From an uncultured Chitinophagaceae bacterium (GTDB lineage Bacteria; Bacteroidota; Bacteroidia; Chitinophagales; Chitinophagaceae): a stretch of DNA of 9,337 nt. The stretch covers positions 1 to 9,337 of the forward strand of contig CAKSVK010000142.1 of NCBI GenBank assembly GCA_934502905.1, read 5' to 3'. The notes below the pieces were generated by a model that saw only the letters and a list, made by a program, of their open reading frames with translations, was not told the origin of the DNA and ran no database searches. How positions within the stretch are numbered: position 1 is the first letter of the stretch; each line of letters begins with the position of its first letter. A program made the translations under genes and the position numbers. This document shows, one piece after another, positions 1,209-9,337 of the stretch.

Positions 1209-1490
1209 CTATTTTATATTAAGTGCCTTTAGCTTTTCACTCAGCTCTGTTAAGCCTGCTTTTGCGAGATAATCGTCAGCAACTTTCTGTAATTCTTCCA
1301 GGGTTTCGGCTGGAATGCTTTCAAGCAATTTATCCTCGTCTTTGGAGATCAACCCTCTTTTGATAACACCATGCAGCAGCAATACGTTTTTTCGGGAGAT
1401 CTTCATATCAATTTTTACTGTTTCGTTCATGCCAGGGATACTTAAAATAGTATCGTAAACTTTGGCTACGTCATTTGTTGTCATCATCAT
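1209..1490 (-). CDS. Small conserved-looking protein of unknown function
   Basis: The product is about 93 residues, beginning MMMTTNDVAKVYDTILSIPG. It is acidic/lysine-rich with no membrane segment or signal peptide, and the C-terminal half (SIPAETLEELQKVADDYLAKAGLTELSEKLKAL) reads as amphipathic helices. The frame extends to a TTG at 1526, but that codon overlaps a TAnnTTTG promoter box (1524-1531), so translation more plausibly starts in the ATG cluster at 1490, 1487 or 1484. I recognise no named family. Its divergent position next to the primase and mobilization genes suggests an element-borne gene, but no function can be assigned. The homogeneous codon use and clean stop make it a likely real gene. 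Confidence 0.65.
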   Translation of the reverse strand: MMMTTNDVAKVYDTILSIPGMNETVKIDMKISRKNVLLLHGVIKRGLISKDEDKLLESIPAETLEELQKVADDYLAKAGLTELSEKLKALNIK

Positions 1491-1523
1491 CACACATTTA
1501 CTTTTTAAACAATCTTCATGCTG

Positions 1524-1531
1524 CAAAGATA
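1524..1531 (-). promoter_or_regulatory. Bacteroidota -7 box for the small minus-strand gene
   Basis: On the minus strand this reads TATCTTTG, a perfect match to the TAnnTTTG -7 consensus of Bacteroidota primary-sigma promoters. Transcription would begin a few bases downstream and leave a leader of roughly 25-30 bases before the ATG at 1490. No good TTTG/TTG -33 element is seen at the usual spacing, so the call rests on the -7 box and position. A GGATATCC palindrome lies just upstream at 1546-1553. Confidence 0.5.
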
Positions 1532-2731: not shown

Positions 2732-2803
2732 TGTGAATAAAGTGAATCTATTGTGTTTGATAACGTTTTCTGCTACATGGGCAGGTGTAAAAAAGAAATG
2801 GTG

Positions 2804-3193
2804 ATGGAAAAGAAAAGTGTAAAGAGAACACGTATTATCGGATTGCGGCTGACACCTGATGAATATGCAAAAATTGAAAAGAAATGGAAAGCAACAACTT
2901 GCCGGAAGCTGAGCGATTATGTACGCCATAGCCTGTTCAATAAACCAGTAGTTACTACTTACCGCAACAGCTCCCAGGATGACTTAATGGCAGAACTTAC
3001 CCGGCTGCGTGGCGAGCTAAATGCCATCGGAAACAACTTCAACCAAGCAGTAAAAAAGTTGCATACGCTCGATAAGATAGCTGAATTCAGAAGCTGGTTG
3101 ATTACTTATGAGCTGGAGAAAAAAATCGTCAGCAATAAGATTGAGGAAGTTCGCAATAACGTGAAAAAAATGGTAGAGATATGGTTACAGTGA
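2804..3193 (+). CDS. mobA: Ribbon-helix-helix relaxosome accessory protein (MobA/MobC-like)
   Basis: The product is about 129 residues from the ATG at 2804; the frame also has ATGs at 2777 and 2798 and a GTG at 2753. I prefer 2804 because the recognisable domain starts at MEKKSVKRTRIIGLRLTPDEY. The N-terminus is a basic ribbon-helix-helix motif (IIGLRLTPDEYAKIEKKWKATTCRKLSDYVRHSL), followed by LMAELTRLRGELNAIGNNFNQAVKKLH, a signature of Bacteroidota mobilization accessory proteins (the MobC/NikA-like group, called MobA in CTnDOT-type elements). Such proteins bind oriT and help the relaxase melt and nick it. The 3' end overlaps the relaxase start by 13 bases, implying translational coupling. 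The candidate oriT is directly upstream. The symbol follows CTnDOT convention and is tentative. Confidence 0.85.
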   Translation: MEKKSVKRTRIIGLRLTPDEYAKIEKKWKATTCRKLSDYVRHSLFNKPVVTTYRNSSQDDLMAELTRLRGELNAIGNNFNQAVKKLHTLDKIAEFRSWLITYELEKKIVSNKIEEVRNNVKKMVEIWLQ

Positions 3194-4488
3194 TTAGACC
3201 AAGCCATTCAATGCATCGTATTTTTAATTATAACGAGAACAAGGTTAAAGAAGGTGTGGCAGAGTGTATTGGTGCAGAAAATTTTCCCCTGGATGCACAG
3301 GAAATGAGCCTTAAAATAAAGTTAGGCTACCTGCTGAAAAGAACGGCGCTGCGCAAAGATATTGCCCGGAAGCATGTACATATTTCCCTCAATTTTGACC
3401 CTTCTGAAACACATCTGAGCAAGGAAAAGCTGGCGGGAATTACCAAAGTCTATATGGAAAAGTTAGGCTTTGGTGAACAACCTTATCTTATTTACCAGCA
3501 CCACGATGCGGGCCACCCCCACCTGCATATTGTTACTACTAATATTCTGGCCAATGGTAATCGTATAGATCTGCATCACCTGGGCATACGAAAATCCGAA
3601 CCTGCACGTAAGGAGATTGAAAAAATGTTTGGCCTTGTGGTAGCGAATACCCGTGCCAGGCGTGAGGTATTCCAGCTGCAACCAGTTAATGTAAAAAGAG
3701 CGCAATACGGGCGCACAGAAACAAAAAGAGCTATCACAAACGTGCTCGATGCAGTACTGTACAAATATCGCTACACCAGCCTGCCTGAGCTAAACGCGGT
3801 GCTGAAACAGTACAACGTGATGGCTGACCGGGGCGATGAAGATTCAAGGATTTTTAAAACTGGCGGTCTGGTGTATCGCATACTCGATGAAGAGGGCAAA
3901 CCTATTGGTGTACCTATAAAAGCCAGTGATTTTTACAACAAACCCACCTGGAAATTTCTAAAGACAAAATTTGGTGCAAATGAGCCGAAGCGCCAGCCAC
4001 ATAAAGCGCGCATCAAAAATGAAATAGACAAATTACTCCTACGTCATGCATCTACACTCAATGAGCTGCAAAAACAACTTGCTGCTAAAGGTATAGACAT
4101 GTTCCTGCACCAAAATGAAGCCGGTCTGATCTACGGCGTCACATACGTGGATCACAAAACCCTATGTGTATTTAACGGCAGTGCGTTGGGTAAACCCTAC
4201 AGCGCAAAGGCCATACAACAACGATGCCTGCAAAAAGAAGTTTCAACGCCGGATTTGCTTCCGCCGCATCCCGCGTTGAAACCTTCTATTGGGTTACCGC
4301 CGCAGCCTACCGTTGCGGCCGAAACCAAGGCTTTCAAGGCTGATCCACAGCCTGCAACTAATGCAGGATCCTCCGAAAATGTACTGGGTATCCTACTACA
4401 ACCGGAATCTGCTTCCGACTATGTCCCACAACAGTTGAAAAAGAAGAAGAAAAAGAAAAAAAAGAAAAATTTATTCAATAACCGATGA
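3181..4488 (+). CDS. mobB: Relaxase/mobilization nuclease (PF03432-type, MobB-like)
   Basis: The relaxase nicks oriT and stays bound to the 5' end through a tyrosine while the strand is transferred. The 435-residue product starts MVTVIRPSHSMHRIFNYNENKVKEG, and Tyr17 in FNYNENK is the likely nucleophile. KHVHISLNFDPSE (residues 64-76) is the second motif. HHDAGHPHLHIVTTN (107-121) is the HxDxxHxH metal-binding motif with all histidines present. The C-terminal half is a less conserved helical region with a repeat-like primase- or coupling-interaction look, ending in ten consecutive lysines (420-429) and NLFNNR. All catalytic residues appear intact. Its start lies inside the accessory gene and the coupling-protein gene follows after 12 bases, so the three form one operon. 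Confidence 0.92.
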   Translation: MVTVIRPSHSMHRIFNYNENKVKEGVAECIGAENFPLDAQEMSLKIKLGYLLKRTALRKDIARKHVHISLNFDPSETHLSKEKLAGITKVYMEKLGFGEQPYLIYQHHDAGHPHLHIVTTNILANGNRIDLHHLGIRKSEPARKEIEKMFGLVVANTRARREVFQLQPVNVKRAQYGRTETKRAITNVLDAVLYKYRYTSLPELNAVLKQYNVMADRGDEDSRIFKTGGLVYRILDEEGKPIGVPIKASDFYNKPTWKFLKTKFGANEPKRQPHKARIKNEIDKLLLRHASTLNELQKQLAAKGIDMFLHQNEAGLIYGVTYVDHKTLCVFNGSALGKPYSAKAIQQRCLQKEVSTPDLLPPHPALKPSIGLPPQPTVAAETKAFKADPQPATNAGSSENVLGILLQPESASDYVPQQLKKKKKKKKKKNLFNNR

Positions 4489-4500
4489 AATGATACGATC

Positions 4501-5283
4501 ATGGCTATACAGACAGGAGAGAACGAACAGGCGTTGAGGAAAATTCTGGATATGACCAGGCTAATCAGCATTGTTATTCTTATTATTCATTTTTATTATT
4601 ACTGTTACATAGCGTTCGCCGGGTGGGGGCTTGTCAGCCAATTTTCAGACCGGCTGCTGGGTAATATCTATAACACGGGGCTGTTTCGGAGTTTTCATCA
4701 TTCCAAGCTGATTGCCTTAGGTTTTTTGGCAATTTCCCTATTAGGAGCCAAGGGACGTAAAGATGAAAAGTTAAGTTATAAAACCGCTTTTGCCTATATC
4801 ATCACAGGATTGCTGCTTTATTTTTTCAGTTACCTGTTCATGTTGCTACCAACAGATATTTCTTCTAAAGCGGCTCTTTATATGAGCCTAACTTCCATCG
4901 GTTTCTTGCTAGTGATTTCAGGCGGCACCCTACTGTCACGTATTATTAAAAACAGGCTCAATACGAAGGATATTTTCAATAGGGAGAATGAAACATTCCC
5001 CCAGGAGGAAAGGCTTTTGGAAAACGAATATTCCATTAACCTGCCAGCACGTTACCGGCTTAAAAATAAAATCCGTTATTCAAAAATTAATGTAATAAAT
5101 CCGTTCCGGGGGTTGCTCTTGCTGGGCTCCCCCGGATCCCGATGGGGAGGAGAAGAAAATCCGGAAAAAGCTATTTTGTTATTCGCCACGTCATCACGCA
5201 GCATATCAGCAAAGGTTTTGCAATGTTCGTATATGACTTCAAGTTTGATGATCTCTCAAAGATTGTTTACAACACCTGGTTAA
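4501..5283 (+). pseudogene. mobC: MobC/TraG-type coupling protein, N-terminal half (frame broken)
   Basis: These are the membrane and first P-loop residues of a type IV coupling protein (VirD4/TraG superfamily; 'MobC' in Bacteroidota), the ATPase that links the relaxosome to the conjugation pore. Hydrophobic stretches at about 20-42, 70-84, 96-117 and 127-149 make a four-segment membrane domain. FPQEERLLENEYSINLPARY and INPFRGLLLLGSPGS (to residue 213) lead into Walker A. After GSPGS, frame 1 runs through 47 unrelated residues to the stop at 5281. The missing continuation (GKSYFVIRH) lies in another frame from 5163, separated by 23 extra bases. The start ATG (4501) is 12 bases after the relaxase stop. 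As written the protein would have membrane anchors but no ATPase. Confidence 0.85.
5140..5162 (+). other. 23-base extra segment inside the Walker A motif
   Basis: Frame 1 gives G-S-P-G-S up to 5139 and the other frame gives G-K-S from 5163. The 23 bases between them (cgatgggg ... aaaatcc) are the only interruption of a perfect GSPGSGKS P-loop. The segment is bounded by a 4-base direct repeat ATCC (5136-5139 and 5159-5162), so its exact placement can slide by up to 4 bases. It sits in two alternative hairpins, CTCCCC/GGGGAG (5127-5132/5144-5149) and CCGGAT/ATCCGG (5132-5137/5159-5164). I see no longer copy of it elsewhere in the window. Confidence 0.85.
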
Positions 5284-6518
5284 AGCAGCGGCATAAATAC
5301 TCCAAGCCACCGACTTTCTACGTCATCAATTTTGACGATCTGACGCGCACCCATCGTTGCAACCCGTTGGAGCCATCGGCTATGACCGATATTACCGATG
5401 CAGCAGAATCTGCACGCACTATTCTGATGGGATTAAACAGGGAGTGGTTGAAACGTCAGGGGGACTTTTTTGTCGAATCACCAATAAATTTTGTTACTGC
5501 AATAATATGGTATCTCAAAAAGTTTAACGATGGTGCATACTGCACATTACCCCACGTCATAGAGCTAATGCAGGCAGACTACGATAGCCTGTTCACTCTT
5601 TTCAGGACTGAAGCCGCCAAAGAATGCGAGGTATTGATTAATCCGTTTTTGAATGCCTATCTCAATGATGTAATGGAGCAATTGGAAGGGCAGATCGCTT
5701 CTGCAAAAGTAGCGATGGCAAGGCTTGCTTCACCACAATTATACTATGTCTTATCCGGCAATGATTTCAACCTTGACATCAACAATCCCGATGATCCAAA
5801 GCTGGTCTGCATGGGCAATAACCCTCAAAAGATACAAATATACGGAGCAGTATTATCCCTGTATGTGAATCGTTTAGTGAAGCTTGTGAATAAAAAAGGA
5901 AAAGTAAAATGCAGCCTTGTTTTTGACGAGTACCCTACTATATATACGCCACTGGATACCGTTGTCGCAACCGGCAGAAGTAATTTAATATCGACAACCA
6001 TTGGGGTGCAATCAATAGAACAGATAAGAAGAGATTATTCGAGAGAACAGGCGGAAGTGCTGATCAATATATGTGGTAATATTATTGCCGGCCAAAGTTC
6101 TGGCGACACCGCAAAACAGGTGTCAGAAAGAATTGGCAAGATCATGCAGGACAGGGAAAGTTACTCCATAAATAGTGGGGATACTTCCATCAGCCGCTCT
6201 AAACAACTGGAAACAGCTGTACCACCGTCTAAAATTTCTGCGCTAAGTTCCGGTGAGTTCGTGGGTTTGGTCGCAGATAATCCGGATAATAAAATAGACC
6301 TGAAAGCCTTTTACTGTGAAATTCTTAATGACCATGCAGCACTGAAAAAAGAAGAAGAAAACTATAAGGAGATACCTGTAATCCGCAAGTTGGATAATAA
6401 TATGATCCAACGGAATTACTTGCAGATCAAGCAGGATATACAGTATATTATTCAGTCGGAAATGGAACGTCTTATTAATAATCCGGCATTGAGCCATTTA
6501 GTAGTCAAAAAAGGATAA
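5142..6518 (+). pseudogene. mobC: MobC/TraG-type coupling protein, C-terminal ATPase half (frame broken)
   Basis: This is the continuation of the coupling protein in another frame. The true homologous segment begins at GKSYFVIRHVITQHISKGFAMFVYDFKFDDLSK (5163 onward, 451 residues). Walker B is LVFDEYPTIY with D262/E263 counted from the ATG at 5142. NLISTTIGVQSIEQIRRDY and NICGNIIAGQSSGDTAKQVSERIGKI form the VirD4-type sensor and C-terminal parts, and the end (NNPALSHLVVKKG) looks complete. The ATG at 5142 falls inside the 23-base extra segment and has no evident ribosome signal. A product from it (MGRRRKSGKS) would lack the first glycine of GxxxxGKS and all membrane segments. Joined with the upstream half minus 23 bases, the protein is 664 residues, which fits the family size as I know it. 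Confidence 0.85.
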
Positions 6519-6687: not shown

Positions 6688-9337
6688 TTACCAAATATTC
6701 CAGTCAAAGCGTTGCAACTCGCGTCTGTGAATGGGTCGCTGCTTACCTCCCGATTCGCGGAAAACTTCGTCAGATAAAAATTTCGCCAGTGCGCCAACAG
6801 TCATCGTTGGAAACCTTTTTTGAGCCGTTAACAGGCATTTGGTAAAATAGCTGTTTTCATTGCGCTCATCTTCAATTGCGTATTCTAAGGCGCTAGAAGC
6901 CGCAATTATAGTGCTACCGGTGAAATTTGACATATCTGTGAAAAGCTCTTTCATTAAATCATATCGGCTAAGCATTAATGCCTGAGCACTAATTTTAGAA
7001 AGCAAATTATTATCCGAAATACGGCTTTGCGACTTAGTGCTATCTTCAGATTGCTTGTTTGAAAGATCATCGCTATTGAACTCAGCGCTGTGACAGGCGT
7101 CAATTAGTATTAGTTTCTTTCGAGCGGGAATACCGTCCAGCAATGCTTCGAAATTTTCATAAAGTATTGAATTTTGATCCGGCTGTTTAAAGTTGGTATT
7201 GTACGAGCTGAGATAATATTTCTTTTCAAAGATGACACCATGCCCAGCATAAGCTATTATAACTTTGTCATCAGGCTTTGTGTTTTTGAGTAAGTGTTTA
7301 AGTGACAGAATATTTTCTTCAGTTGCGCTGTCATTATAGAGCGTTTTTAAAACTATTGAATCCTGGTATATTCCTTTAAACATCTTTGCAAGATCCTGAA
7401 CGTCTTTTTGGCTGAAAGTTAACGAGTCTTCGAGATTTTTAAATTTATTAATGCCAATACCAATGAAATATAATTTTGATTTTTGAAGCTTTGATTCATT
7501 TTCGACAACATAATTAATGCGCGCACTTTGTATCTGATTAACGTCAACCGCTTCTGCTTCAATAAAGTTCTCCCCGGAAGATAAATTTACTGTAATAGTT
7601 GTGTCTATATGTTTACGATGGATATTTCGAATATCAATTCCTTCTTTTCCATATAACGGAACATCATTTACCCAAACATTAATTTTAGATAAAAGCGAAT
7701 TCCCGGTGGATGCCCGAATTGCTAGCTGAATGGTACTAACGCCATCGGTTTGAGTTGAGCCTCCTTTCTTTTTTATTGTAATCTCTGGAAAACTGACTTT
7801 TGCAATATCCAAAGATGTGTCAATATTTAAATATTTTACCCGCTCAATCCATGCATTTTTATGCGCCAGAATTATTGAAGTATCATATTTACCTGCTAAA
7901 TTGAAAACTGTTTCCAGTACCAGGTCCGGGCGGTTTAAGTAATTGTCAAATTGGCTAAGAGATATCGATTGAAGACTTTGGACAAAATAACATCGTTTAA
8001 GAACATCCTTGCTGGCGTAGTAATAGTTCCCCGGAATAATATAACTCAACGTGCTATCTGGGCTGGCAATAATGGTGAGCAACGGTTCGGGAAAATAGTT
8101 GTGTGTCTTCCAAAAATCAAACCTGTATAATCTAAATATTCCTTCATCGTTACCCAAAATCATGTATTGATTATCCGCAGAAATGTCAATATGACTGAGC
8201 CCCGGCAACTGAACACCAAAGCTGCCGCCTGTAGCAAAACCATTCTTTAAATCTACTAACTCTACACCAAAAGTACCGTAGGAGCATATTAAGAAATTTC
8301 CATCTTGACTTAAACAAACCGCATCGATGCCCAGCCCGAGAGGGATCTTTTGATGAATTATATTTTTATACCGACTGCCTTTGGAAACTTCTTTTATTTT
8401 TTTAGGATATTCATAATAATCACTGGCTATGGTTGGTTTTGGAAGTTTGATGATATATTTCCCAGTAGATCCTAATACAGAATCCTTTTTATTCTCTTTG
8501 ATATTCCTGATAGAATCCAAATAATTGGGGTCAAATTCCGGACTTTTTATATCCACATCAAAATATCTTGTATTGCCAAATCCCGGATTATAATAGCTTA
8601 CCAAGACAGTGTCACCTTTTGAATTCCACGCCTCATAGGTATACCCATCAACGTCAGTCTCTGAAGGTATTGATTCTAATGATTTAAAAGAGGCTGTTTT
8701 ATCCGTTATCCTGAGTCCAGTATGTCCATCAAATCCAACACTAAACGCTATTTGTTTTTGCGTAGCTTTGGTTCCTTCAAATGGAATTACTGATTGCCTG
8801 AGGTTAATGCTGTCAAGCAATTGTCTCCTGGTTCCAGAGTAGATAAGTATTATGCTGTCTCCAATTGCCTCAACTTTGTAATTTTCATTATGCGTATGAA
8901 AGAGCTTGTTAGTTTCCGGATCCCTTGACAGTTCTACGTTGCTTTCTGTTGGCCTTGGGTAGATCCCAACAAATTGATCTCGATTATTCCAAATTATAGT
9001 GCTTTCCAAAATATCAGAATACAGGAAAAAAAAATTTTCTTTATTGCTGAATCCCACTTTGCCCATGTCTCCCAAAGGATCTTCAGCCCCGACAAACAAT
9101 CTTCCTTCTTTTTTTTTAAAATCAACCTTAGTAAGCTCTCCTTCCAGGTTACCAACCAGCATTACAGTATTATTTCTATTTAGTACCACGTTATTAATAC
9201 CACCTTGAAATTTAGTATATCGATTCGAAAACACTTTTCGTTCCGTTGATTTTTCCCAAAGCTCAACAGATTGATTGTTAATGCTGATCAGATATGCAGA
9301 ATCCTGGCTTAGGTAGCCCTCGGGCAGCCCTGGAGAT
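6688..9337 (-). CDS. Beta-propeller/WD40-like + caspase-family protease (5' partial)
   Basis: At least 882 residues are visible; the frame is open to the right window edge with no start codon in the extra 34 codons, so the GTG at 9234 is only the first candidate start and the real N-terminus lies outside. Numbering from that GTG: residues 1 to about 440 are beta-strand-rich repeats (for example GIDAVCLSQDGNFLICSYG, HIDISADNQYMILGNDEGIFRLYRF) resembling a degenerate WD40/propeller sensor. About 490-575 is a beta-sandwich-like linker (INVWVNDVPLYG ... LSSGENFIEAEAVD). From about 587 comes a caspase-like peptidase C14 domain: LYFIGIGINKF, AYAGHG with H665, LIDACHS with C714, then ASSALEYAIEDE and a complete end RRELQRFDWNIW. 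The His-Cys dyad is intact. Bacterial proteins of this type are signalling proteases, sometimes linked to regulated death or defence; the role here is unknown. It is convergent with mobC. Confidence 0.88.
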   Translation of the reverse strand, partial: SPGLPEGYLSQDSAYLISINNQSVELWEKSTERKVFSNRYTKFQGGINNVVLNRNNTVMLVGNLEGELTKVDFKKKEGRLFVGAEDPLGDMGKVGFSNKENFFFLYSDILESTIIWNNRDQFVGIYPRPTESNVELSRDPETNKLFHTHNENYKVEAIGDSIILIYSGTRRQLLDSINLRQSVIPFEGTKATQKQIAFSVGFDGHTGLRITDKTASFKSLESIPSETDVDGYTYEAWNSKGDTVLVSYYNPGFGNTRYFDVDIKSPEFDPNYLDSIRNIKENKKDSVLGSTGKYIIKLPKPTIASDYYEYPKKIKEVSKGSRYKNIIHQKIPLGLGIDAVCLSQDGNFLICSYGTFGVELVDLKNGFATGGSFGVQLPGLSHIDISADNQYMILGNDEGIFRLYRFDFWKTHNYFPEPLLTIIASPDSTLSYIIPGNYYYASKDVLKRCYFVQSLQSISLSQFDNYLNRPDLVLETVFNLAGKYDTSIILAHKNAWIERVKYLNIDTSLDIAKVSFPEITIKKKGGSTQTDGVSTIQLAIRASTGNSLLSKINVWVNDVPLYGKEGIDIRNIHRKHIDTTITVNLSSGENFIEAEAVDVNQIQSARINYVVENESKLQKSKLYFIGIGINKFKNLEDSLTFSQKDVQDLAKMFKGIYQDSIVLKTLYNDSATEENILSLKHLLKNTKPDDKVIIAYAGHGVIFEKKYYLSSYNTNFKQPDQNSILYENFEALLDGIPARKKLILIDACHSAEFNSDDLSNKQSEDSTKSQSRISDNNLLSKISAQALMLSRYDLMKELFTDMSNFTGSTIIAASSALEYAIEDERNENSYFTKCLLTAQKRFPTMTVGALAKFLSDEVFRESGGKQRPIHRRELQRFDWNIW

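What the first reader, a model, noticed from the sequence alone, without database searches (positions are those of the whole stretch)
5125..5171. Coupling ATPase split precisely inside its Walker A loop by 23 bases
The frames on either side read GSPGS and GKSYFVIRH. Removing 5140-5162 gives one continuous 664-residue MobC/TraG protein with a perfect GSPGSGKS. The break falls on the most conserved motif of the protein, while the rest of both halves is undamaged with no other stops or frameshifts. That suggests a recent event, an assembly error, or a tolerated or functional split. The 4-base direct repeat ATCC at both ends is compatible with a small insertion or repair-type event.
Basis: seen in the sequence. 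Interest (0 to 1): 0.75.

Follow-up and report, generated by a model that had tools for sequence, protein, structure and literature searches.

The report
Ribosome-hop cassette inside conjugation ATPase gene
The 23 extra bases that split this DNA-transfer motor gene are not a stray error: related bacteria carry similar short gaps at exactly the same spot, just after a conserved RNA hairpin, and in those relatives both halves of the gene stay under selection, so the ribosome likely jumps over the gap to make the whole protein.

Summary
In detail: mobC (MobC/VirD4-type coupling ATPase of a Bacteroidota mobA-mobB-mobC module) is split at GSPGS|GKS by 23 out-of-frame bases (5140-5162). "Recent event or assembly error" does not hold. 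In 12 distinct genes (window plus 11 from other genomes) a gap of 8, 11, 13, 22, 23 or 25 nt sits between the same two codons. A compensatorily varying stem-loop (window 5105-5136) abuts the UCN codon before the gap in 12 of 12; none of 181 gap-free relatives has all 7 outer pairs. Within two split clades both halves show dN/dS 0.02-0.13, and bases after the gap evolve as codons of the downstream frame (8-nt clade, first 20 codons: 10 synonymous, 0 nonsynonymous). One gene (L227) cannot be joined by any single frameshift; nine of 11 genes examined lack an ATG/GTG/TTG from which the downstream frame could start before GKS. The codon before the gap resembles the triplet ending it (2.25 of 3 bases versus 0.22 elsewhere in gaps).

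Best reading: programmed translational bypassing, like phage T4 gene 60, with the 5' hairpin as motor. Product and hop are inferred, not measured. My searches of open papers listed nothing like it for MobC.

The parts
2753..3193 (+). mobA-like ORF (relaxosome accessory, NikA-like/MobC_2 domains), first gene of the mobilisation module; start codon not determined
   Evidence: Pfam NikA-like E 2.7e-15; NCBIfam Bacteroid_MobA E 1.7e-11, below its cut-off
3181..4488 (+). mobB relaxase gene (MobA/VirD2-type nuclease), open throughout
   Evidence: Pfam Relaxase E 1.3e-25; NCBIfam Bacteroid_MobB E 1.4e-81, 274.6 bits, below its cut-off of 400
4501..5139 (+). mobC, upstream part: YWFCY membrane domain up to GSPGS of the Walker A loop; its frame runs on to a stop at 5281-5283
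   Evidence: NCBIfam Bacteroid_MobC profile positions 2-210; ORF list
5105..5136 (+). Conserved stem-loop directly 5' of the predicted take-off codon: outer stem U5105 CCGGGGG 5106-5112 with CCCCCGG 5129-5135 A5136; inner stem GCUC 5115-5118 with GGGC 5124-5127
   Evidence: 11-pair structure 98.5% paired in 12 distinct split genes, covariation 0.296 versus 0.096 shuffled, 0 of 500; outer 7 pairs complete in 12 of 12 split, 0 of 181 gap-free genes; U-A closing pair in the predicted folds
5137..5139 (+). Predicted take-off codon UCC (Ser)
   Evidence: Ser UCN in 12 of 12 split genes; 73 of 182 rows of the gap-free set have Ala; role inferred
5140..5162 (+). 23-nt out-of-frame gap, containing an SD-like purine run (GGGGAGGAG 5144-5152)
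   Evidence: Absent from 79 of 79 assessable close relatives; similar gap in L161 and L173
5160..5162 (+). Predicted landing triplet UCC, identical to the take-off codon; decoding would resume at GGA 5163
   Evidence: Take-off/landing match 2.25 of 3 on average versus 0.22 at 138 other gap positions; role inferred
5163..6518 (+). mobC, downstream part: GKS of Walker A, ATPase/TraG-like domain, C terminus
   Evidence: NCBIfam Bacteroid_MobC positions 210-655, Pfam T4SS-DNA_transf, TraG-D_C; 0 of 186 columns invariant in relatives are changed

Best explanation
The 23 bases are a short coding gap that ribosomes likely hop over: mobC belongs to a recurrent family of coupling-ATPase genes split inside the Walker A codons, each of the 12 seen at DNA level with a conserved hairpin directly before the gap. 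Predicted steps: the ribosome reads the membrane domain up to GSPGS and pauses on the Ser codon UCC (5137-5139); the peptidyl-tRNA lets go; the mRNA behind it zips into the stem-loop 5105-5136, which pulls the message through and stops back-sliding; the tRNA re-pairs at the matching UCC (5160-5162), and decoding resumes at GGA AAA AGC, giving one protein with a normal Walker A loop. Shown here: the gap family, the hairpin with compensatory changes, selection on both halves in two split clades, the take-off/landing similarity, and that no single frameshift can join the frames of L227. Inferred: that translation, not RNA or DNA processing, skips the gap; that the window's own gene works as its relatives do; efficiency; and any regulatory use.
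For: (1) Recurrence at one codon boundary: inserts of 8, 11, 13, 22, 23, 25 nt in 11 further distinct genes from 12 genomes; 32 of 120 listed N pieces leave MobC after S213. (2) Function kept: NG86 dN/dS 0.095-0.118 (N) and 0.022-0.037 (C) in the 8-nt clade, 0.10-0.13 and 0.051-0.076 in the 11-nt clade where dS is finite. First 20 codons after the gap, pairwise sums: downstream frame 10 synonymous/0 nonsynonymous (8-nt clade) and 32/15 (11-nt clade); the same stretch in the upstream frame 0/10 and 4/46. (3) Hairpin tied to the gap: outer 7 pairs complete in 12 of 12 split versus 0 of 181 gap-free genes; both-side changes at 4 pairs, covariation 0.296 versus 0.096 +- 0.026, 0 of 500 shuffles. 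(4) Codons pinned by the stem: CGG and CCC 12 of 12, GGA 11 of 12, the one GGG forming U-G. (5) Take-off/landing match: at least 2 of 3 bases in 10 of 12, versus 0.7% of 138 other gap positions. (6) L227: upstream-frame TAA before, downstream-frame TAG after, frames do not overlap (-10 nt); L172 overlap 8 nt. (7) No ATG/GTG/TTG in the downstream frame between its last stop and GKS in L157, L201, L202, L159, L163, L167, L161, L172, L227 (9 of 11 distinct genes). (8) G-U pairs at several stem positions suit RNA.
Against: No expression or protein data. Take-off and landing are identical in only 5 of 12 (UCC/UCC); L163 and L167 match 1 of 3 unless read in the shifted register GGG to GGC/GGT, and L201 and L227 would land on UAG. 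The window lacks the stop codon directly after take-off that T4 gene 60 has. The codon after take-off is not rare except CGA. Bacteroidota ribosomes are thought to make little use of SD pairing (recalled). Some gap-free genes have near-complete hairpins: 23 of 181 form 6 of 7 pairs, and L224 folds at -22.5 kcal/mol. L173 has the hairpin and gap but a large deletion in the C part, so not every copy is alive. The 23-nt type itself (window, L161) is saturated at synonymous sites, so selection was measured in the 8- and 11-nt clades only. The window is on the high side of change: 2 of 48 invariant N-half columns altered (mean of relatives 0.24) and 23 changes at 95%-conserved C-half columns, a number that only 1 of 79 relatives reaches, although L001, intact, has 20.
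Confidence: 0.72

Rival explanations
1. The gap is a recent inactivating insertion or an assembly error; mobC is a fresh pseudogene.
For: Both halves of the window gene are otherwise undamaged, no exact second copy of the 23-mer was found, and the nearest genome relative L001 is intact. The window's gene shows more changes at conserved columns than most relatives. L173 shows that some split copies do decay.
Against: Gaps at the same codon boundary in other genomes, inherited through clades with dS of about 0.5-3 while dN/dS stays at 0.02-0.13 in both halves; full hairpin seen only with the gap; the window's broken protein is recorded on 3 contigs.
Confidence: 0.03
2. A programmed +1 or -1 frameshift joins the frames and the gap is translated as extra residues in the P-loop.
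For: In 11 of the 12 rows (10 of 11 distinct genes; L168 repeats L167) the two frames overlap by at least 8 nt; the window has an A5 run at the border; dnaX-type SD-stimulated -1 shifting is known (recalled).
Against: Impossible in L227 (frames do not overlap) and confined to 8 nt in L172; gap lengths need -1 in some genes and +1 in others; the A-run is not kept (GGTAAGAGT in L167); products would carry extra residues of no common sequence inside the Walker A loop.
Confidence: 0.06
3. Two separate proteins are made: a membrane part ending at GSPGS and an ATPase part started internally, which assemble.
For: 17 of the 32 N pieces end right after GSPGS; the window has an ATG at 5142 in the downstream frame, and P0222 begins MRRRKRTGKS.
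Against: No canonical start between the last downstream-frame stop and GKS in 9 of 11 distinct split genes; the codons from GKS on are conserved in the downstream frame, so that frame is read from at or before GKS; a P-loop built from two chains would be very unusual (recalled).
Confidence: 0.06
4. The gap is cut out of the mRNA (an unusual small intron or nuclease-ligase event directed by the hairpin).
For: Explains L227 and all frames; a hairpin next to a fixed border is what an RNA-processing enzyme could recognise.
Against: Gaps of 8-25 nt with no internal sequence common to all are too short for known introns (recalled); the codon-like match of take-off and landing triplets has no role in such a model; Rfam has no match in the window at the gathering threshold (the other loci were not searched).
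Confidence: 0.08
5. The hairpin plus ATCN is a DNA target of a mobile element or recombinase, and the gaps are scars or a phase switch.
For: Insertion point at a fixed distance from a palindrome, direct repeats at some of the ends, scattered distribution with at least 13 changes on the N-half tree. Group IIC introns insert beside hairpins (recalled).
Against: A target should also occur unoccupied, but 0 of 181 gap-free genes have the full outer stem, though 23 come within one pair; scars would kill the gene, yet both halves stay selected; G-U pairs point to RNA; the strict hairpin pattern was found at no other kind of site in 254 loci.
Confidence: 0.05

Closest known systems
Bacteriophage T4 gene 60 translational bypassing (PMC5009743, PMC11194080; passages read)
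   Same: Non-coding gap between a take-off and a matching landing codon; a stem-loop 5' of take-off proposed as a motor; SD-like sequence before landing in the 23-nt type; many relatives (17 of 32 N pieces) end right after the take-off residue, as if a stop followed.
   Different: Gap 8-25 nt, not 50; take-off UCN (Ser), not GGA; the stem abuts the take-off codon; landing is often only 2 of 3 matched; in a conjugation ATPase of bacterial mobile elements; the window has no stop after take-off; nascent-peptide role untested.
Translational bypassing in Magnusiomyces capitatus mitochondria (named in PMC5009743 passages)
   Same: Short inserts that split genes and are tolerated through bypassing; imperfect take-off/landing match in some.
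   Different: Those lie at 81 positions and seem independent of mRNA context; here one site in one gene family with a strong conserved hairpin.
Prevotella loescheii adhesion gene, reported 29-nt hop (mentioned in PMC5009743; original not read)
   Same: Same phylum, short translational hop in a bacterial gene.
   Different: Single reported case that proved difficult to get to work in E. coli; no link to MobC or to this hairpin was tested.
Bacteroid_MobC coupling protein family, NCBIfam NF041326
   Same: Same protein: the pieces match profile positions 2-210 and 210-655.
   Different: The 181 gap-free members compared here have an uninterrupted Walker A codon run and no complete outer stem.

Membership tests
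Programmed translational bypassing (T4 gene 60 type) | Coding gap that cannot be joined by re-pairing at an overlapping codon | tested here: met
   L227 frames do not overlap (-10 nt), L172 by 8 nt only; in the window itself the frames overlap by 190 nt, so for the window alone this is not decisive
[quoted passage not shown]
   Window UCC/UCC; family: identical in 5 of 12, at least 2 of 3 bases in 10 of 12
Programmed translational bypassing (T4 gene 60 type) | Stem-loop 5' of take-off | tested here: met
   Covarying 11-pair stem-loop abutting the take-off codon
Programmed translational bypassing (T4 gene 60 type) | Stop codon directly after take-off | tested here: not met
   CGA follows in the window; none of the 12 genes seen as DNA has a stop there, while L159, L161 and L227 have TAA one codon later. 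17 of 32 N pieces end exactly there as proteins. A stimulator rather than the definition
Programmed translational bypassing (T4 gene 60 type) | Nascent-peptide signal (basic KKYK motif about 25-30 residues before take-off) | tested here: inconclusive
   RYRLKNK lies 23-29 residues before S213 in the window, but gap-free L001 has it too
Programmed translational bypassing (T4 gene 60 type) | Joined protein product that lacks the gap's residues | not testable with these tools
   Needs mass spectrometry or a reporter
MobC/VirD4-type coupling protein | YWFCY membrane domain, Walker A, TraG/TraD C-terminal domain in order | tested here: met
   Pfam YWFCY, T4SS-DNA_transf, TraG-D_C; NCBIfam MobC on the two pieces, each piece below the curated cut-off for a whole protein; Walker A codons only across the gap
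Pseudogene | Relaxed selection after the break | tested here: not met
   dN/dS 0.02-0.13 in both halves within two other split clades; in the window 0 of 186 invariant C-half and 2 of 48 invariant N-half columns changed, the latter on the high side

The most novel reading that the evidence does not exclude
A hairpin-driven ribosome-hop cassette has been gained repeatedly at the Walker A codons of conjugation coupling ATPases across Bacteroidota, making production of the DNA-pumping motor depend on a programmed jump: a translational gate on gene transfer and the first broad family of programmed bypassing in bacterial genes.
Probability: 0.45. Interest if true: 0.95.

Novelty: new variant of a known kind. 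Interest (0 to 1): 0.86.

Why it matters
The passages read of the review PMC5009743 speak of a paucity of known bypassing: T4 gene 60, one yeast mitochondrial lineage that changed the count, and a few suspected bacterial or phage cases. A conserved family with a dozen members seen as DNA, gaps of six lengths and a covarying hairpin would turn bypassing into a comparative problem: what sets take-off, how far the ribosome slides, how strict landing is. It would also mean that some conjugation motors that gene finders report in two pieces are working genes, and that some mobile elements carry a recoding step in the most conserved motif of their transfer ATPase.

Tried and rejected
Search for the 23-mer: no exact hit in genome contigs or viral contigs. 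Templated-insertion idea: no second copy with up to 3 mismatches in the window; the direct repeats listed in 4501-6518 are two-copy families of at most 15 nt, and I saw no source for the gap among them. Recombination breakpoint at Walker A: the high C-half identity to L001 comes from a shared allele further downstream, not from a junction at the gap. Plasmid records: matches under 60% identity at protein level; none was followed as a split case. IMG/VR: no relative of the C part, three distant ones of P0005, not followed. -1 slippage on the Lys codon, transcriptional slippage on the A-run, and initiation at ATG 5142 are not conserved across the split genes. 'Hungry codon' after take-off: not supported except CGA. 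The N-half tree (FastTree, P-loop-side columns not left out, several weakly supported nodes) is used only to say that the split state is scattered and that the window groups with P0002-P0005, P0007-P0009 and P0021 (support 87). mobB was found by the window's own mobB in 4 of 8 split loci tried (L157, L161, L172, L173), not in L158, L159, L163, L167.

Rows dropped before counts: L029 (contig edge) from the first 80, 8 of 128 loci without the strict GKS motif. For the hairpin comparison, of 254 loci 1 had no N half, 1 was too short, 2 had no motif; 236 rows were called gap-free and 14 split. L167 and its copies were among the 236 because their upstream frame reads GGG AAA AGC; after removing duplicates there were 182 gap-free and 11 split rows (window included), and I moved L167 by hand, giving 181 and 12. 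L168, L209-L213 and L106/L157 are repeats of counted genes. The match lists were cut by the tool, and I fetched 20 of the places with short frames, so the number of split genes is a lower bound. The pair L158-L159 was left out of the dN/dS table. Split N proteins known only as proteins (such as P0002-P0005, P0007-P0009, P0093, P0094) were not seen as DNA, so 'stop after take-off' there is read from protein ends.

Papers: the searches listed nothing that looked like bypassing or a split Walker A in MobC; they cover open PMC papers only and several lists were capped (for example 10 of 102, 8 of 46, 8 of 398). PMC5009743 and PMC11194080: passages only. The others: search listing only.

Full report
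What was checked. The window holds a Bacteroidota mobilisation module: a toprim/primase-like gene (1622-2545), a mobA-like ORF (2753-3193), the relaxase gene mobB (3181-4488) and mobC (4501-6518), followed by a caspase-domain gene on the other strand. No drug-resistance gene was seen among the eight proteins scanned. mobC is split as described: GSPGS ends at 5139, GKSYF starts at 5163 in another frame, and 23 bases lie between. The pieces, searched apart, match the MobC family at positions 2-210 and 210-655 of 655.

Is it a lone accident? In the 80 nearest genome loci 79 have the halves directly adjoining and in frame; the other is at a contig end. The first impression is therefore a private insertion. 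The protein search with the broken N piece changed the picture: of the 120 relatives listed (of 702 matches), 32, the window's own included, leave MobC homology exactly after the residue equivalent to S213, while no other position has more than 4. Seventeen of the 32 end right there and two one residue later; nine carry tails that fit an 8-nt gap (TGPAKV type), two tails that fit a 23-nt gap like the window's (P0075 RCGGEEEPEK, P0077 RCGGKEKPEK against the window's RWGGEENPEK), and P0105 has another tail. The window's own pieces are recorded on 3 contigs each.

DNA of other split genes. Whole-genome searches (14, 399, 394, 222 and 149 genomes, partly overlapping; the 399 and 394 again with other queries) and 20 fetched stretches gave 11 further distinct split genes in 12 genomes: gap 8 nt in L157 (=L106), L201, L202; 11 nt in L158, L159, L163, L167 (=L168, two genomes); 13 nt in L227; 22 nt in L173; 23 nt in L161; 25 nt in L172. 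The gap lies between CCC GGR UCN and GGN AAR in all of them. L161's 23-mer resembles the window's; so does L173's 22-mer, but L173 has lost most of its C part and looks dead.

Are they alive? Within the 8-nt clade dN/dS is 0.095-0.118 for the N half and 0.022-0.037 for the C half; within the 11-nt clade 0.10-0.13 and 0.051-0.076 where dS is finite, at synonymous distances of about 0.5 to 3; one N-half pair is saturated. There are no stops in the N halves, and the downstream frames are open for 448-486 codons (L173 not included). Directly behind the gap, the first 20 codons show 10 synonymous and 0 nonsynonymous differences in the 8-nt clade and 32 and 15 in the 11-nt clade when read in the downstream frame; the same stretch read in the upstream frame gives 0 and 10, 4 and 46; over 85 codons of the 8-nt clade 76 and 8 against 4 and 80 (pairwise sums, so shared changes count more than once). 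The GKS side thus evolves as coding sequence of the downstream frame. In the window, none of 186 C-half columns invariant in relatives is changed and 2 of 48 N-half columns are, the latter more than in most relatives (mean 0.24); at 95%-conserved C-half columns the window has 23 changes and intact L001 20; the two share a divergent allele further downstream.

The hairpin. Aligning the split genes showed a stem-loop directly 5' of the gap: UCCGGG(G/C)G ... C(C/G)CCCGGA, then the UCN codon, then the gap (window 5105-5136). All 7 outer pairs form in 12 of 12 distinct split genes and in 0 of 181 distinct gap-free ones, where 23 reach 6 of 7. With the inner helix the 11-pair structure is 98.5% paired; four pairs change on both sides, covariation 0.296 against 0.096 +- 0.026 in shuffles, 0 of 500 as high, and slid versions fall to 28-60% paired. 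For the same peptide with random synonymous codons the full outer stem would arise with a chance of 0.004-0.019 per gene (11 genes). The stem fixes codons that are free elsewhere: Arg CGG 12 of 12, Pro CCC 12 of 12, Gly GGA 11 of 12, the one GGG still pairing as U-G. The 38-nt fold energies are -17.7 to -24.5 kcal/mol in split genes and have a median of -8.6 in gap-free ones, though gap-free L224 reaches -22.5. The strict hairpin pattern hits 14 of 254 loci, each time at a split mobC; it misses L106/L157 and L159/L213, whose stems use a U-G pair.

How the frames can be joined. Gap lengths leave remainders of 2 (8, 11, 23) or 1 (13, 22, 25), so no one kind of frameshift serves all. In L227 the upstream frame ends at TAA three bases into the gap and the downstream frame is closed by TAG just before GGA: the frames do not overlap, and no single frameshift can join them; in L172 only 8 nt are left. 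Nine of 11 distinct split genes examined have no ATG, GTG or TTG in the downstream frame between its last stop and GKS; the window (ATG) and L158 (GTG) do. What all share is that skipping the gap would give a normal Walker A loop. The UCN before the gap agrees with the last triplet of the gap at 2.25 of 3 bases on average, against 0.22 at 138 other gap positions; identical in 5 of 12, at least 2 of 3 in 10 of 12; L163 and L167 match GGG to GGC/GGT one codon later. Matching take-off and landing codons and a 5' stem-loop are marks of T4 gene 60, where the 5' stem-loop is thought to pull the mRNA as it zips up, and where a stop stands next to take-off (PMC5009743 and PMC11194080, passages). I therefore commit to programmed translational bypassing. 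That translation does this, rather than RNA or DNA processing, is inferred.

Distribution. On an N-half tree of 223 rows the split state needs at least 13 changes; the window falls with eight proteins (P0002-P0005, P0007-P0009, P0021) that all end directly after GSPGS (support 87), so the window probably descends from a split ancestor (inference). Whether the cassette moves or arises repeatedly is open.

Limits. No expression data; the 23-nt type itself is too diverged for a dN/dS of its own; landing triplets vary, including UAG in two genes with UCG take-off (L201, L227); near-complete hairpins exist in some gap-free genes; the host of the window is unknown. The literature searches covered open PMC papers only, with capped lists.

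Noticed in passing
window 5880-6150 (mobC C half, residues about 240-330 of the C-half alignment): The window and L001 share an allele of the segment after DEYPTIY (TPLDTVVATGRSNLISTTIGVQSIEQ) that differs strongly from the one in L002, L012 and L034 (LNNMDSLIATARSN...), which suggests recombination or two functional types.
   Followed up: partly
window 6688-9336, minus strand: Large protein with a C-terminal caspase (Peptidase_C14) domain directly behind the mobilisation module, convergent with mobC.
   Followed up: no
window 1209-1526, minus strand: 105-aa ORF beside the primase-like gene without any Pfam or NCBIfam match.
   Followed up: no
window 4438-4467: mobB ends in a run of 10 lysines shortly before its stop.
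   Followed up: no
L201 2131-2138 and the 13-nt gap of L227 (minus strand): Both genes with a UCG codon before the gap end the gap in TAG, a stop in the downstream frame right before GGN; the other ten end it in TCC, TCA, TCT, ACC or CCG.
   Followed up: partly
L224 and L204: Gap-free mobC genes with very stable folds at the hairpin site (-22.5 and -19.3 kcal/mol); possible precursors or revertants of the split state.
   Followed up: no
L173 4266-4650: A split mobC with hairpin and 22-nt gap but with most of the ATPase part deleted: a decayed copy.
   Followed up: no
   Followed up: no
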